From Lichenicoccus roseus (GTDB taxonomy: Bacteria > Pseudomonadota > Alphaproteobacteria > Acetobacterales > Acetobacteraceae), in the NCBI RefSeq assembly GCF_005844085.1, contig NZ_VCDI01000001.1, positions 1 through 64,000 of the forward strand: a stretch of 64,000 nt of DNA, read 5' to 3'. The translations under genes were made by a program, and so were the position numbers. The notes below the pieces were generated by a model. The model was given only the letters and a program-made list of their open reading frames with translations, had not been told where the DNA came from and ran no database searches. Shown piece by piece: positions 15,810 through 19,735 of the stretch. Position 1 is the stretch's first letter. Each line of letters begins with the position of its first letter.

Positions 15810-16322
15810 ATGTCCGCCACCAATGCAGCCTCCGCTCCGCCGGCCCTGCCGCTGACGATGAACCTGCAATACACCAAGGACCTCTCCTTCGAGGTGCCGG
15901 CGGGAGCCGAGATCTTCGCGACGCTGCGCTCGAACCCGCAGATCTCGGTCAACATCGACGTGCAGGCGAACCGGCTGCAGCAGGACCAGGCGGTGTTCGA
16001 GATCGTGCTGGCGATCAAGACCGAGGCGACCGAGCCCGCAGGCGAGACCGGCGCCGCCCCGCGCGTGGTGTTCATCGCCGAGCTCGCCTACGCCGCGGTG
16101 GTGACGCTGAACGAGGTGCCCGACAACATGATCGAGCCGCTGCTGCTGGTCGAGGTGCCGCGGCTGATCTTCCCTTACGCGCGCAACATCATCAGCGAAG
16201 TCACCCGCGACGGCGGCTTCCCGCCGGTGGTGCTGCAGCCGATCGACTTCGTCGGGCTGTGGCAGGCCAAGCGCGGCCAGAACAATGCGGCGCAAGTCAG
16301 CACCCAGACCGGCCACGCCTGA
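15810..16322 (+). CDS. secB: Protein-export chaperone SecB
   Basis: 170 residues, normal for SecB. It keeps preproteins unfolded in the cytoplasm and hands them to SecA. The conserved core is complete: LNLQ-like opening (TMNLQYTKDLSFEVP), VNIDVQANRL, a GxxxFIAELAYA-like strand (VVFIAELAYAAVVTL), LLVEVPRLIFPYARNIIS and the TRDGGFPPVVLQPIDF segment. The ATG at 15810 follows GGGAGA at suitable spacing. Linkage to the Tim44-domain gene and mltA is typical of alphaproteobacteria. The stop codon touches the left arm of a large inverted repeat (16321-16483). Confidence 0.97.
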   Translation: MSATNAASAPPALPLTMNLQYTKDLSFEVPAGAEIFATLRSNPQISVNIDVQANRLQQDQAVFEIVLAIKTEATEPAGETGAAPRVVFIAELAYAAVVTLNEVPDNMIEPLLLVEVPRLIFPYARNIISEVTRDGGFPPVVLQPIDFVGLWQAKRGQNNAAQVSTQTGHA

Positions 16323-16483
16323 AACACGGTTGAGGCTGCACTACGCCGGCGGTCCGAGGCGTCTCTCGTCCGCTCCGGTGCTCACGGCCAGGAGGCCGCT
16401 CCGCTCCGGTGCTCGCAGAGCCGCCCCGGGCGTGCCGCTTTGCGGCACTCCCACTCGGCGTAGCGCAGCCTCAGCCGTGTTTC
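16321..16483. repeat. 163-bp imperfect inverted-repeat element between convergent genes
   Basis: A 28-nt arm at 16321-16348 pairs with 16456-16483 with two mismatches. The ~107-nt interior holds a 14-nt direct repeat (16370-16383 and 16401-16414) and a nested 7-bp hairpin (16432-16438 with 16442-16448). The element fills the spacer between the secB stop and the stop of the leftward exported-protein gene. It contains no gene. It may act as a bidirectional terminator, or be a copy of a small palindromic element dispersed in the genome. Confidence 0.7.
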
Positions 16484-16502
16484 CTCGTTTCCGGGAAGGT
16501 GT

Positions 16503-17666
16503 CTAGCTCCTCGGGTCGGCGTGCAGCTTGAACAGCATGCCTTGCGCCTTGACCCCTAGCTCCCCGTTCATCGGGCCCTGGGCCGGGCCTCGGAGGGTCA
16601 CGTGTTCGCTCGCGGCGTTGGTGGCGAGGCCGCTGCTGGTAGTGGCGTCCAGGCGGCAGCCGGCACCGGTCTCGCAGCGGAAATTGCCATCCAGGCCGGT
16701 GCTGCCGAGCCTGGAGATGCCCAGCCAGCTGTCGACCAGCGCGCCATCCTGGTCGGTCAGCAGCGACAGCCTGCCATCCAGGGCCTGGTTGTCCATGGTG
16801 AGCGTGACGGGAACGTCGTAGGAGGCGACCGGCAGCAGGTTGGGCACGTTGAGGTCCGCACCCATGCCACCCAGGGTGGCCGCCATGCCGTGCAGCGCCT
16901 GCGTCCAGAAGCCACGTGCCTGCTCTCCGAAGGCGGGGTCGCCATCGACATCGGCACCGACGCCATACGCGTAGAACACGCTCCGGCGGAGGTAGGTGCC
17001 CAGCTTCTGGCCGAGGCCGCCGAGATCGGGGCTCGCCTCCGGCGCGGCACCCGGCTTCGGGATGACCTCGCCGAGATCGCTGTCCTCGGACATGTCGGAA
17101 TAGACGATCGCGCGCAGCGTGACCCGGCTGGCCGCGAAACGGCCCTCGTCGGAGGCCAGCGCACGGATGATGTCCTTGTGCGGCGGATCGCCGGCATTGA
17201 TCCGGACCACATCGGCGGGGCGCTTTGACTGCTGGTAGATCGTGGTCAGTGCGGCGCCCATCGCGCCCAGGAAGAATTTCTGCTGGTCGCCGATGCCCGA
17301 CAGCGGGTTGCGGCTGAACAGGAAGCTCTGGCCGGCGATGTCGGCCTTCTGCGCGGCGGTATAGGCCGGCCAGCACGCGGTCCAGATCTCGCTGCTCTGG
17401 CCATTGGCGGGCGACAGCCGTACCACGGTGACCCGCTCTCCCGGCGAGAGCGTTGCGCGCAGCTTGACGGCGAGCTTGCGGGCCCAGTCGGTCTGGCCGT
17501 CGACCATCATCATGTCGTCGACATAGACCACCGTCTGGCGCACGCTCGGTGTCTTGCAGAACGCCGGATCGAGCCCGTCCGGGCCGAACAATGCGGCACG
17601 CGCCGGCACCGGCGCAAAAGCCGGGGCGAGCAACGGCAACAGGGCCAGCAGCCAACCGCCGCGCAT
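16503..17666 (-). CDS. Exported protein of unknown function, third gene of an envelope cluster
   Basis: 387 residues. A signal peptide (GGWLLALLPLLAPAFAPVP, then ARA) predicts export. The mature N-terminus (VRQTVVYVDDMMMVDGQTDW followed by ARKLAVKLRATLSPGERVTV) reads like the first strand and helix of an alpha/beta domain of the type that holds von Willebrand A modules, but the DxSxS metal motif is absent, so this is only a resemblance. Four or five cysteines (FCKTP, TACWPAY, FRCETGAGC) could form disulfides. The C-terminal ~90 residues look like a beta-rich module (LTMDNQALDGRLSLLTDQDG). It starts 1 nt after the stop of the coiled-coil membrane protein, so the two are translationally coupled. 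I do not recognise a family with a known role. Confidence 0.8.
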   Translation of the reverse strand: MRGGWLLALLPLLAPAFAPVPARAALFGPDGLDPAFCKTPSVRQTVVYVDDMMMVDGQTDWARKLAVKLRATLSPGERVTVVRLSPANGQSSEIWTACWPAYTAAQKADIAGQSFLFSRNPLSGIGDQQKFFLGAMGAALTTIYQQSKRPADVVRINAGDPPHKDIIRALASDEGRFAASRVTLRAIVYSDMSEDSDLGEVIPKPGAAPEASPDLGGLGQKLGTYLRRSVFYAYGVGADVDGDPAFGEQARGFWTQALHGMAATLGGMGADLNVPNLLPVASYDVPVTLTMDNQALDGRLSLLTDQDGALVDSWLGISRLGSTGLDGNFRCETGAGCRLDATTSSGLATNAASEHVTLRGPAQGPMNGELGVKAQGMLFKLHADPRS

Positions 17667-17667
17667 C

Positions 17668-19017
17668 TCAGGACTCCAGTTCGGACAGCAGGCCGCGATC
17701 GACGGTGAGACGCGCGGGCTCCGGCGGCCGCTCGCCGGGCACCGTCAGCGCGCCCCCGGTGGCGGCTGCCGTGGCGGTGCCGGTCGCTGCCTGGGCCGTC
17801 GCCAGCGCCGCCCGGTACTGCTCGGCGTTGCTGCGTACGGCGGCGGTGATGGCGTCGCGCAAGGCACGGTCACGTGCCTCGACCTGGTCGAGCAGCGCCT
17901 TCGCCGGCAGAGCCGCATCGATGCGGCTGCGCGACGCCAGTTCGGTCTCGCGCAGTTCCTTGGCGGTGCGGCTCTCGATCTGCAGGATGCGGGCATCGGC
18001 GGGCTTGCGCAGCCGGTGGTAGCGACGCCAGGCGACGCGCCGCTGGCCGGTCGCGTCCATGTAGTCGGGATCGCTGTCGTGCGAGACATAGGCGAGGAAG
18101 ATGCCGACCAGCCACGCCGCCAGGTTGGCCAGCAGCGACAGCAGCACGTCGATGCCGGGATCGCTCTGTACCGCGACGTCGCTGCCCAGGATGTTCGGGC
18201 CGCCCTGCTCGCGGATGACGTGCAGCGCCGCCATGTAGCGCGAGCCGCCGGCCGCCCCGAGCACGACCACCAGCGCCAGGGTGGAGAGCCCGAGGAAGCG
18301 CCAGTCCGCGATCCGCCTGGTGCGCTCGGCATGGTGGCCGAAGCGGTGCGTCCACTGCTTGAGGATGGCGCCGTGGCCGTGCGAGGCGAAGGCCAGCAGG
18401 CAGGCCAGGATCAGGGTGGTGCCGGCGGCGATCGCCGGAACGCCGAAGAACAGGAAGAAGGTGGTGTAGTTGATCAGCCACTCGGTCAGCCCGACGCAGA
18501 ACAACGCCAGCAGATAGACCGGCTGGCGGGCGATCATCACCGCGCCACGGTTGCCGTTGGCGTCGCTGTAGCGGCGGAACCGGGCGTCGGCCTCCTCGAA
18601 GCGGGTGCGGCGCTCGCGGTAGCGATGGTTCTGCTCCATCTCGCGCTCGACCTGCGCCATGTCCTCGTCGCGCCGGCGGCCCAGGTCGGCAAGCTCCTGC
18701 TGCAGCCGCGACGCGCCGTCCAGGGCGTCGCGATGCGGCCCGAGCCTGGCGTCGAAACCCGCGCGCACCTGCTTCCACTCAGACAGCAGCGCCCGCGCCG
18801 GCTCCAGCACGGCGCCGCGCATGCCGGGGGTGAAACCACGCGCATCGGCCTGCACCGGCGAGCCTCCTTGGCGGACCTCTCGCTGCGCCGCCTCGGCAAG
18901 CAGCGCCGGCGGCACCAGCAGGCGCCCGGCCCGGTCGGGCCCGAACGCCATCGCCTCTTGGAAGGCAGCCTGCAGCGGGTCCGGATGGCCGGGCTTGCCG
19001 GGAAAGCCGATCGCCAT
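17668..19017 (-). CDS. Four-helix membrane protein with long coiled coils (DUF4407-like architecture)
   Basis: 449 residues. The N-terminal third is soluble and charged, with a coiled coil at about residues 75-155 (RLQQELADLGRRRDEDMAQV and following). Two close membrane helices (~165-215: LLALFCVGLTEWLINYTTFF, then GTTLILACLLAF) are followed by two more (LGLSTLALVVVLGAAGG and LLSLLANLAAWLVGIFLAYV). The C-terminal ~130 residues are a second coiled coil ending in a Pro/Thr-rich tail. The layout recalls DUF4407-type membrane proteins; the family assignment is tentative. It lies between an OmpA-like lipoprotein gene (19 nt upstream) and a secreted-protein gene (1 nt downstream), suggesting a three-component envelope structure spanning inner membrane to outer membrane. 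Confidence 0.8.
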   Translation of the reverse strand: MAIGFPGKPGHPDPLQAAFQEAMAFGPDRAGRLLVPPALLAEAAQREVRQGGSPVQADARGFTPGMRGAVLEPARALLSEWKQVRAGFDARLGPHRDALDGASRLQQELADLGRRRDEDMAQVEREMEQNHRYRERRTRFEEADARFRRYSDANGNRGAVMIARQPVYLLALFCVGLTEWLINYTTFFLFFGVPAIAAGTTLILACLLAFASHGHGAILKQWTHRFGHHAERTRRIADWRFLGLSTLALVVVLGAAGGSRYMAALHVIREQGGPNILGSDVAVQSDPGIDVLLSLLANLAAWLVGIFLAYVSHDSDPDYMDATGQRRVAWRRYHRLRKPADARILQIESRTAKELRETELASRSRIDAALPAKALLDQVEARDRALRDAITAAVRSNAEQYRAALATAQAATGTATAAATGGALTVPGERPPEPARLTVDRGLLSELES

Positions 19018-19036
19018 GCTCAGTCTCCGGATCGGT

Positions 19037-19735
19037 TCAGTAGGAGACCGGCGCGCCGAGCGGAGCCCGGCTGACGCCGTCGGGAACGCGTGGCTGCACC
19101 CGCACCACTTGCAGGCGGTTTGGATGCAGGCCGAGCGGCGACGGATGACGCGCCGCCAGCACGCCGTCGATGGCATGACGGCTCGCCCCGATCAGCACCT
19201 CGACGCGCCGGTTGCGGGCGCGGGCGTCGGCATCGTCCTGGCCGCCCGGCAACGGCTCGCGCAGCCCGACGCCGATCGCCTGCAGCCCGGAGGCCGGCAG
19301 CCCGGCGGCCACCAGTTCGCGGACGATCTCGCGGGAGCGGCGCCGCGACAGCGCGAGGTTGTAGGCATCGCTGCCGACATCGTCGGTGTGGCCGACAACG
19401 GCGATCTGCCTGGCGTTCGGGCCGGCAGCGCGGAGGCGGGAAGCCAGCGCGGCGAGCACCGGAGCGGCATCCGGACGCGGATGGTCGCGGTTGGTATCGA
19501 AGAACACGCGGGAGTCGTAGGTCAGGCTGGTGACCCGCGTGGTGCCGCCTCCGGCCGCCGGCACGGTCAGCTCTGCCACGACCGGCTCGAACGGCTGGCC
19601 GGGCGCGGCAGCGGCTGCAGCGGCCGGTGCAGGACGTCCGGCCTGCGCCACCGGCGTGGATGGACCGGGCGAATTGCAGCCGACGCAGCACGCGCACAGC
19701 AGGACAGGGAGAAGGATGCGCGCGGCACGGCTCAT
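19037..19735 (-). CDS. OmpA-family peptidoglycan-binding lipoprotein
   Basis: 232 residues. The signal peptide carries a lipobox (LLPVLLCACCVGC, then NSPG), so the protein is lipid-anchored. After an Ala/Pro-rich linker the C-terminal domain is OmpA-like (VFFDTNRDHPRPDAAPVLAA, then IAVVGHTDDVGSDAYNLALS, SRRRSREIVRELV, and ARARNRRVEVLI), with the Asp and Arg positions that bind meso-diaminopimelate (GHTDD and NRRVE). The start is the ATG at 19735, the only one giving a signal peptide. It is the first gene of a three-gene unit, with a strong promoter match at 19793-19821. Confidence 0.88.
   Translation of the reverse strand: MSRAARILLPVLLCACCVGCNSPGPSTPVAQAGRPAPAAAAAAAPGQPFEPVVAELTVPAAGGGTTRVTSLTYDSRVFFDTNRDHPRPDAAPVLAALASRLRAAGPNARQIAVVGHTDDVGSDAYNLALSRRRSREIVRELVAAGLPASGLQAIGVGLREPLPGGQDDADARARNRRVEVLIGASRHAIDGVLAARHPSPLGLHPNRLQVVRVQPRVPDGVSRAPLGAPVSY

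What the first reader, a model, noticed from the sequence alone, without database searches (positions are those of the whole stretch)
16503..19735. Uncharacterised three-gene envelope machine: OmpA lipoprotein, coiled-coil membrane protein, secreted protein
Three coupled genes (19 nt and 1 nt spacing) behind a 17-nt-spaced TTGCAG/TATTAT promoter encode a peptidoglycan-anchored outer-membrane lipoprotein, an inner-membrane protein with four helices and two long coiled coils, and an exported Cys-containing protein with no known family. The trio would span the envelope, in outline like Tol-Pal, Zor or gliding-type assemblies, but no MotA/TolQ-type component is present. I know no description of such a set.
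Basis: partly seen in the sequence, partly recalled or inferred. Interest (0 to 1): 0.6.

Follow-up and report, generated by a model that had tools for sequence, protein, structure and literature searches.

The report
Mobile envelope module around periplasmic vWA
Three neighbouring genes in this acetic-acid-type bacterium belong to a little-noticed gene set that recurs as a unit in scattered alphaproteobacteria and on some plasmids, and probably builds a cell-wall-anchored assembly across the cell envelope; what it does is not known.

Summary
The trio is real and is a conserved unit. On the minus strand lie an OmpA lipoprotein (19735-19037), a 4-TM inner-membrane protein with cytoplasmic coiled coils (19017-17668) and an exported protein (17666-16503). 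Searches started from the exported or from the membrane protein found the other next door each time: 12 of 12 and 11 of 11 loci, and the same 7 plasmids (7 of 7). The three proteins diverge in parallel. The set is rare and scattered (9 of 397 family genomes, 9 genera), also on rhizobial and sphingomonad plasmids (6 of 7 typed conjugative); three virus searches found none. The fuller form has four genes: 13 of 21 long-type loci add a glycine-zipper-like protein, absent from the window's genome. Six loci have only the membrane protein and a short exported protein. The exported protein, without a profile family, is predicted as a vWA domain plus an eight-stranded barrel. The membrane protein reaches no family cut-off and keeps Glu179, Asn183 and Asn298 in its TM helices (26 of 26 rows). 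Tests for Tol-Pal, Zorya and the FtsZ-like-1/vWA/OmpA system were not met. Best reading: an accessory trans-envelope assembly, function unproven. The proposed promoter is unsupported.

The parts
19037..19735 (-). OmpA-family lipoprotein, 232 aa, C-terminal tail ending in Tyr
   Evidence: PF00691 E 2e-12; Gly115, Asp118, Arg133, Asn175-Arg177 kept in 17 of 17 OmpA rows
19211..19504 (-). OmpA C-terminal (peptidoglycan-binding) domain, residues 78-175
17668..19017 (-). inner-membrane protein, 449 aa: cytoplasmic coiled coil, 4 TM helices, cytoplasmic coiled coil (predicted); no family above cut-off
18082..18522 (-). four-TM region, residues 166-312, with Glu179, Asn183, Asn298 in TM helices and Gly216, kept in 26 of 26 rows; His213 (24 of 26) at the cytoplasmic edge; His313 and Asp314 (25 of 26) follow just after
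16503..17666 (-). exported protein, 387 aa: signal peptide, vWA-like domain, eight-stranded barrel (predicted)
16827..17549 (-). vWA-like domain, about residues 40-280; first-strand Asp50 and fourth-strand Asp191 present, DxSxS serines absent
16506..16829 (-). C-terminal eight-stranded antiparallel barrel, about residues 280-387 (predicted)

Best explanation
A mobile accessory module builds a cell-wall-anchored assembly across the envelope. Its core is a pair: a four-helix inner-membrane protein with cytoplasmic coiled coils, and a periplasmic vWA protein that acts as adaptor on its outer face, probably by gripping a peptide of a partner. In the larger form the vWA protein has a barrel domain, and an OmpA protein (wall and, as a lipoprotein, outer-membrane anchor) and often a glycine-zipper-like protein are added. 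The membrane protein would pass a signal or force between cytoplasm and periplasm; the invariant Glu/Asn residues in its helices suggest ion coupling. Shown here: the genes, their linkage, order, scatter and conservation. Predicted: folds and topology. Inferred: physical complex, adaptor role, ion coupling, and any benefit to the cell.
For: Linkage from both directions: from the exported protein, the membrane protein was directly upstream in 12 of 12 distinct loci (read with 18, 28, 95); from the membrane protein, a vWA relative was directly downstream in 11 of 11 new genomes (read with 40, 57, 85, 95); both L043 proteins hit the same 7 of 72,556 plasmid records, side by side in 7 of 7. The 27 loci tabulated have membrane protein then vWA; OmpA in 18 of 21 long-type loci, fourth gene in 13 of 21, neither beside the 6 short-type loci. 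The short vWA proteins are relatives by an independent profile comparison over their length (hhalign probability 97.2, E 4.4e-11). Distances correlate: membrane-vWA r 0.88 (23 loci), membrane-OmpA 0.83 and vWA-OmpA 0.83 (17 loci), 0 of 2000 label shuffles as high. OmpA-domain residues intact. vWA-like fold. Glu179, Asn183, Asn298, Gly216 in 26 of 26.
Against: No interaction data, and no complex prediction could be run. Correlated divergence also arises from shared ancestry of linked genes without contact. The OmpA domain is lost in L019 and L022 and no OmpA lies beside the six short loci, so a wall anchor is not essential to the core. Single-profile scores of the window-type vWA against the short type are weak (E 0.027 to 0.39, none for L066). 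Ion coupling rests on three conserved polar residues; they may serve structure or metal transport. The vWA model has mean pLDDT 68.5, with most of 198-278 under 50, and the metal-binding motif of vWA domains is incomplete. Flanking genes give no functional lead.
Confidence: 0.45

Rival explanations
1. It is a phage- or plasmid-defence (or exclusion) module that senses envelope disturbance at the cell wall and acts inward through the membrane protein, in outline like Zorya.
For: Scattered distribution, 9 of 397 family genomes, 9 genera; on plasmids, 6 of 7 typed conjugative; differing neighbours; the OmpA part hits ZorB models through its OmpA domain; cytoplasmic coiled coils (predicted).
Against: No effector enzyme in the module; membrane and vWA proteins hit no PADLOC model at E up to 10; of ten genes picked near four plasmid copies one gave a weak PADLOC hit, E 2.6e-4; the window's neighbours are ordinary genes such as SecB, Tim44-like, MltA, BLUF; no relative found in viral contigs or phage records with the queries used.
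Confidence: 0.2
2. It is a passive envelope tether or stress-tolerance device (Pal-like), with the membrane protein as an inner anchor and no energy coupling.
For: OmpA domain with its conserved residues, a lipobox in the window's protein, a further glycine-zipper-like protein at 13 of 21 loci.
Against: 388 of 397 family genomes gave no match, and the core pair occurs without an adjacent OmpA or fourth gene; invariant acid and amide residues inside the membrane are not expected of a plain anchor.
Confidence: 0.2
3. The membrane protein is an ion or metal transporter and the vWA protein its periplasmic partner.
For: Invariant Glu/Asn in the helices and conserved His213, His313, Asp314 near the cytoplasmic edge; a CorC/CNNM membrane domain appears among structural matches over residues 196-315 (7cff, Z 7.3, rmsd 3.1, 97 aligned).
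Against: That Z lies under the level the tool calls meaningful for helical bundles; no transporter profile reaches its cut-off in Pfam or NCBIfam; two long coiled coils and an OmpA partner are unusual for a transporter.
Confidence: 0.1
4. The vWA protein is exported to the surface as an adhesin, like CglB of Myxococcus gliding (recalled; here only its title was seen, in a reference list).
For: vWA-like domain; lipobox-like starts of the vWA protein in L038 and L046 (by eye).
Against: No surface-export signal noticed, DxSxS absent in 26 of 26 rows, tight link to an inner-membrane protein.
Confidence: 0.05

Closest known systems
FtsZ-like-1 (FtsZl1) / vWA / OmpA / GTPase operons (PMC2875224; passages seen)
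   Same: vWA protein and OmpA-domain protein encoded together with membrane proteins; proposed membrane-linked machinery
   Different: No tubulin-like protein: PF13809 found in 2 of 20 genomes bearing our module, not in the window's, and on other contigs than the module
Tol-Pal
   Same: OmpA-domain lipoprotein plus inner-membrane and periplasmic parts
   Different: No Tol genes among the neighbours identified; lipoprotein scores 56 bits against Pal's cut-off of 125.35; periplasmic partner is vWA plus barrel, not TolB's propeller (recalled)
Zorya (ZorA/ZorB)
   Same: Inner-membrane protein with cytoplasmic extension, OmpA domain, patchy spread
   Different: Membrane protein hits no PADLOC model, ZorA included; the OmpA part starts with a lipobox; window neighbours carry other Pfam names
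McaA of magnetotactic bacteria (PMC9512821; passages seen)
   Same: Periplasmic vWA domain linked to a cytoplasmic part, used to place things inside the cell
   Different: One protein with an intact MIDAS motif that it needs; ours is separate from its membrane protein and has no DxSxS
MoxR-vWA ternary systems (PMC7159879; passages seen)
   Same: vWA as peptide-capturing partner; some subsystems include OmpA domains
   Different: Those pair the vWA with an AAA+ ATPase; our module encodes none

Membership tests
OmpA-family PG-binding proteins | OmpA C-terminal domain with conserved Asp/Arg and NRRVE motif | tested here: met
   PF00691 47.7 bits over 27.2; Asp118, Arg133, Asn175-Arg177 in 17 of 17; that this Asp/Arg pair contacts peptidoglycan is recalled
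vWA domain proteins | vWA (Rossmann-like) fold | tested here: inconclusive
   prediction only: 17 chains with Foldseek E under 0.001, best 7.4e-5, among them Sec23, ITIH1, integrin, VWA2; VIA Z 9.4-11.3 to Ku, INTS13/14, Rpn10 and CLCA1 entries; no Pfam family for the protein at E up to 10
vWA domain proteins | complete MIDAS with DxSxS | tested here: not met
   0 of 26 rows have DxSxS; first-strand Asp in 26 of 26, fourth-strand Asp in 21 of 26 (for 25 rows, for L066)
Tol-Pal | Pal equivalog score and linked tolQRAB | tested here: not met
   TIGR02802 56 of 125.35 bits; identified neighbours are SecB, histidine phosphatase, Tim44-like, MltA, DUF1345, BLUF, GGDEF-EAL
Zorya | MotA-like ZorA | tested here: not met
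   no PADLOC family at E up to 10 for the membrane protein; by fold alone inconclusive
Zorya | ZorB with TM anchor and OmpA domain in one protein (recalled) | tested here: not met
   the OmpA protein starts with a lipobox; best ZorB hit E 7.5e-12 covers residues 70-180, the OmpA domain
FtsZl1/vWA/OmpA system | FtsZ-like-1 protein (PF13809) | tested here: not met
   0 in the window's genome, 2 of 20 module-bearing genomes
Cap15 / eight-stranded sensing barrels | eight-stranded antiparallel barrel fold | tested here: inconclusive
   7n34 Z 11.0, rmsd 2.8, 96 aligned; tied with 1jmx (11.0) and OmpA TM barrel 1qjp (10.8), so only the barrel shape is shown
Cap15 | cyclic-dinucleotide binding | not testable with these tools
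   no ligand test possible; the domain here is predicted to be exported

The most novel reading that the evidence does not exclude
A new class of horizontally spread, ion-coupled trans-envelope machine: a four-helix inner-membrane protein unrelated to MotA/TolQ/ExbB drives or senses a periplasmic vWA adaptor that is tied to the cell wall by an OmpA lipoprotein, which some copies exchange for a proline-rich one; it grows from a two-gene core to a four-gene assembly.
Probability: 0.25. Interest if true: 0.8.

Novelty: new variant of a known kind. Interest (0 to 1): 0.5.

Why it matters
If the reading holds, there is a mobile class of envelope-spanning assemblies in alphaproteobacteria, on plasmids of plant symbionts among others, whose core pair (four-helix coiled-coil protein plus periplasmic vWA) no searched profile library names. 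Few unrelated motor families are known to couple the inner membrane to the cell wall (recalled); a further one would be worth having, and the two-gene form offers a small test system.

Tried and rejected
Rejected: Zorya, Tol-Pal and FtsZl1 membership. Virus origin: no relatives in viral contigs with the vWA alignment or with L043's vWA, nor in phage records with L043's vWA; these are a few queries of limited reach. Plasmid searches with the window's own vWA, the L037 membrane protein and the L038 vWA: no match; only L043 and L036 queries hit plasmids. Fold search of the membrane protein: nothing with E up to 0.001; VIA matches up to Z 9.7 are at the level of helical noise. Viral fold library: vWA proteins and barrels, no lead. 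Empty-site test: DUF1345 is itself patchy (23 of 60 genomes, own included) and SecB was found in none of 24 DUF1345 loci with about 1.5 kb flanks, so no syntenic site could be compared. GC content is not foreign: trio 71.5%, window 69.1%. Class of G812: 1 of 48. Literature: among the papers listed by searches (98 listed 10 of 23) I saw none that describes this gene set, but I saw passages of only five; the library lacks most subscription journals, so this does not show it is unpublished. The Cap15 likeness was considered as a defence clue and set aside because other eight-stranded barrels score the same.

Limits: searches scored only the best 4 or 5 candidates of a genome, so their counts are lower bounds. 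One search scanned with two peptide patterns only and missed L012. For the fourth gene 8 of the 13 loci are profile rows, and its glycine-zipper Pfam scores lie under the cut-offs. Rows are related: L037, L063, L064 and L065 are near copies. Errors of mine: the L035 OmpA row and the L066 vWA row were out of frame, and L066 again; redone. The plasmid hits H3, H5 and H6 were not opened.
Full report
What is there. On the minus strand, 19735-19037 encodes a 232-aa OmpA lipoprotein, 19017-17668 a 449-aa membrane protein and 17666-16503 a 387-aa exported protein. Gaps are 19 and 1 nt. The OmpA domain is clear (PF00691). For the exported protein Pfam, NCBIfam, PADLOC and PHROGs list no family. For the membrane protein PADLOC lists none and the best others are weak and under their cut-offs where there is one (Pfam E 0.0082, PHROG 0.0062, NCBIfam 0.041). 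The claimed promoter does not stand out.

The window's organism. Its family is f1 of the genome search. So the window lies in Acetobacteraceae (inference).

Is the trio a unit? Three searches started from the exported protein: 5 of 100 relatives and 9 of 397 family genomes in 9 of 102 genera, both counting the window's own, and 10 loci in the contigs of 84,980 species, whose titles name Acetobacteraceae, genera of that family, or Rhodospirillales. Searches with membrane-protein alignments in 289 class, 299 phylum and 59 further genomes gave 11 new genomes; a vWA relative lies directly downstream in 11 of 11. For the short form this relation is weak by single profile (E 0.027-0.39, L066 none) but clear by profile-profile comparison (probability 97.2, E 4.4e-11, columns 1-243 on 1-257). 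In 72,556 plasmids each L043 protein hit the same seven records, side by side: four Rhizobium, one Sinorhizobium, one Agrobacterium, one Novosphingobium, six typed conjugative. I opened four of the seven.

Anatomy across loci. Of 27 loci tabulated, 21 have a long exported protein and 6 a short one. Long type: OmpA in 18 of 21; of the other three, L010 is cut by a contig end, and L019 and L022 carry a proline-rich lipoprotein that lacks the OmpA domain but keeps a lipobox and a tail ...PLGPAxxY. A fourth gene, a small protein with a glycine-zipper-like part and a CR...CR..GD[WY] C-terminus, mostly with a lipobox, is present in 13 of 21 (L027 cannot be judged, its contig ends inside the vWA gene); the window's genome gave no match. 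Order is OmpA-membrane-vWA(-fourth), or in five loci fourth-membrane-vWA-OmpA. Short type: membrane protein and a vWA protein whose match ends where the barrel would begin, with no OmpA and no fourth gene within 6 kb in 6 of 6, as far as the loci reach. G569, a short-type genome, has a fourth-gene relative elsewhere (E 4e-11).

Co-divergence. Pairwise distances of membrane protein and vWA correlate at r 0.88 over 23 loci, membrane-OmpA 0.83 and vWA-OmpA 0.83 over 17, with 0 of 2000 label shuffles as high. This fits inheritance and transfer as one unit; it does not prove contact. L062, in another family of the class, is as close to the window (36% membrane, 45% vWA) as several Acetobacteraceae copies are, which suggests transfer between families.

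Structures. The exported protein (mean pLDDT 68.5) has a vWA-like domain at about 40-280: Foldseek lists Sec23, ITIH1, integrin and VWA2 chains (that these carry vWA folds is partly recalled), and VIA gives Z 9.4-11.3 to Ku, INTS13/14, Rpn10 and CLCA1 entries. Most of residues 198-278 is low in confidence. A C-terminal eight-stranded barrel at 280-387 matches Cap15 (Z 11.0, rmsd 2.8, 96 aligned), a quinohemoprotein amine dehydrogenase chain (11.0, 2.6, 98) and the OmpA barrel (10.8, 2.9, 103) equally, so it shows shape, not function. The MIDAS motif is incomplete: the first-strand Asp is kept in 26 of 26 rows, the fourth-strand Asp in 21 of 26, DxSxS in none. Cys98 is kept in 26 of 26 and Pro100 in 25 of 26. 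The membrane protein (mean pLDDT 83.4) has no informative fold match. The TM2-TM3 loop and the stretch after TM4 are rich in Lys/Arg (6 and 7 against 1 in the TM3-TM4 loop), so both coiled coils should be cytoplasmic. Glu179 and Asn183 in TM1, Asn298 in TM4 and Gly216 are kept in 26 of 26; His213 in 24, His313 and Asp314 in 25.

How it may work. I think the membrane protein and the vWA protein form the core at the inner membrane, and that the lipoproteins tie the larger form to wall and outer membrane. vWA domains bind extended peptides through MIDAS (PMC7159879, passages seen), which is incomplete here. A periplasmic vWA that places a protein in the inner membrane is known from McaA (PMC9512821, passages seen), although McaA needs its MIDAS motif. 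The polar residues in the helices suggest coupling to an ion or a signal. None of these steps is shown here. Scatter and plasmid carriage say it is accessory; they fit defence, competition or stress roles alike.

What it is not. Tests against Tol-Pal, Zorya and the FtsZl1/vWA/OmpA operons of PMC2875224 (passages seen) were not met. Neighbours of the window's trio are ordinary (SecB, histidine phosphatase, Tim44-like, MltA, DUF1345, BLUF, GGDEF-EAL), and of ten genes picked near four plasmid copies one gave a weak PADLOC hit. Five literature searches listed no paper that I could see describing the set.

Verdict. The finding is real and better than ordinary: a conserved, mobile envelope module without a name in the libraries searched, seen here in a three-gene form. 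The claim of a machine remains inference. Interest 0.5.

Noticed in passing
window 16320-16490: Just downstream of the trio lies a near-palindromic stretch (about 28-nt inverted ends, by eye) that has 8 matching places in the window's own genome, itself included: a dispersed repeat, perhaps MITE- or REP-like.
   Followed up: partly
window 19037-19042 and related lipoproteins: The lipoprotein's tail ends in Tyr or Phe in 10 of 12 window-type loci, also in L019 and L022 where the OmpA domain is gone; in the other clade it is the vWA protein that ends in Phe (7 of 8 rows). It may be a C-terminal recognition tag.
   Followed up: partly
L046:9630-17243 (Novosphingobium plasmid pSA2): The four-gene module lies upstream of HxsB and HxsC, annotated His-Xaa-Ser radical SAM maturases, with two small hypothetical genes between. 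Not listed at the other three plasmid loci opened (the gene tables are incomplete).
   Followed up: no
L037, L063, L064, L065: The two-gene form lies beside genes that read like typA (L037, L063, L065) and rpoH (L063, L064, L065), by eye, yet only 4 of 11 sampled genomes of that genus gave a match.
   Followed up: no
L038:8965-9738 and L046:11842-13143: In these two loci the vWA protein itself starts with a lipobox-like stretch (LAAC, LTAC), so it may be membrane-anchored.
   Followed up: no
L021:592-1851, L022:8353-9540: Two window-type loci have a Peripla_BP_6 binding protein as neighbour, probably chance because such genes are abundant.
   Followed up: partly
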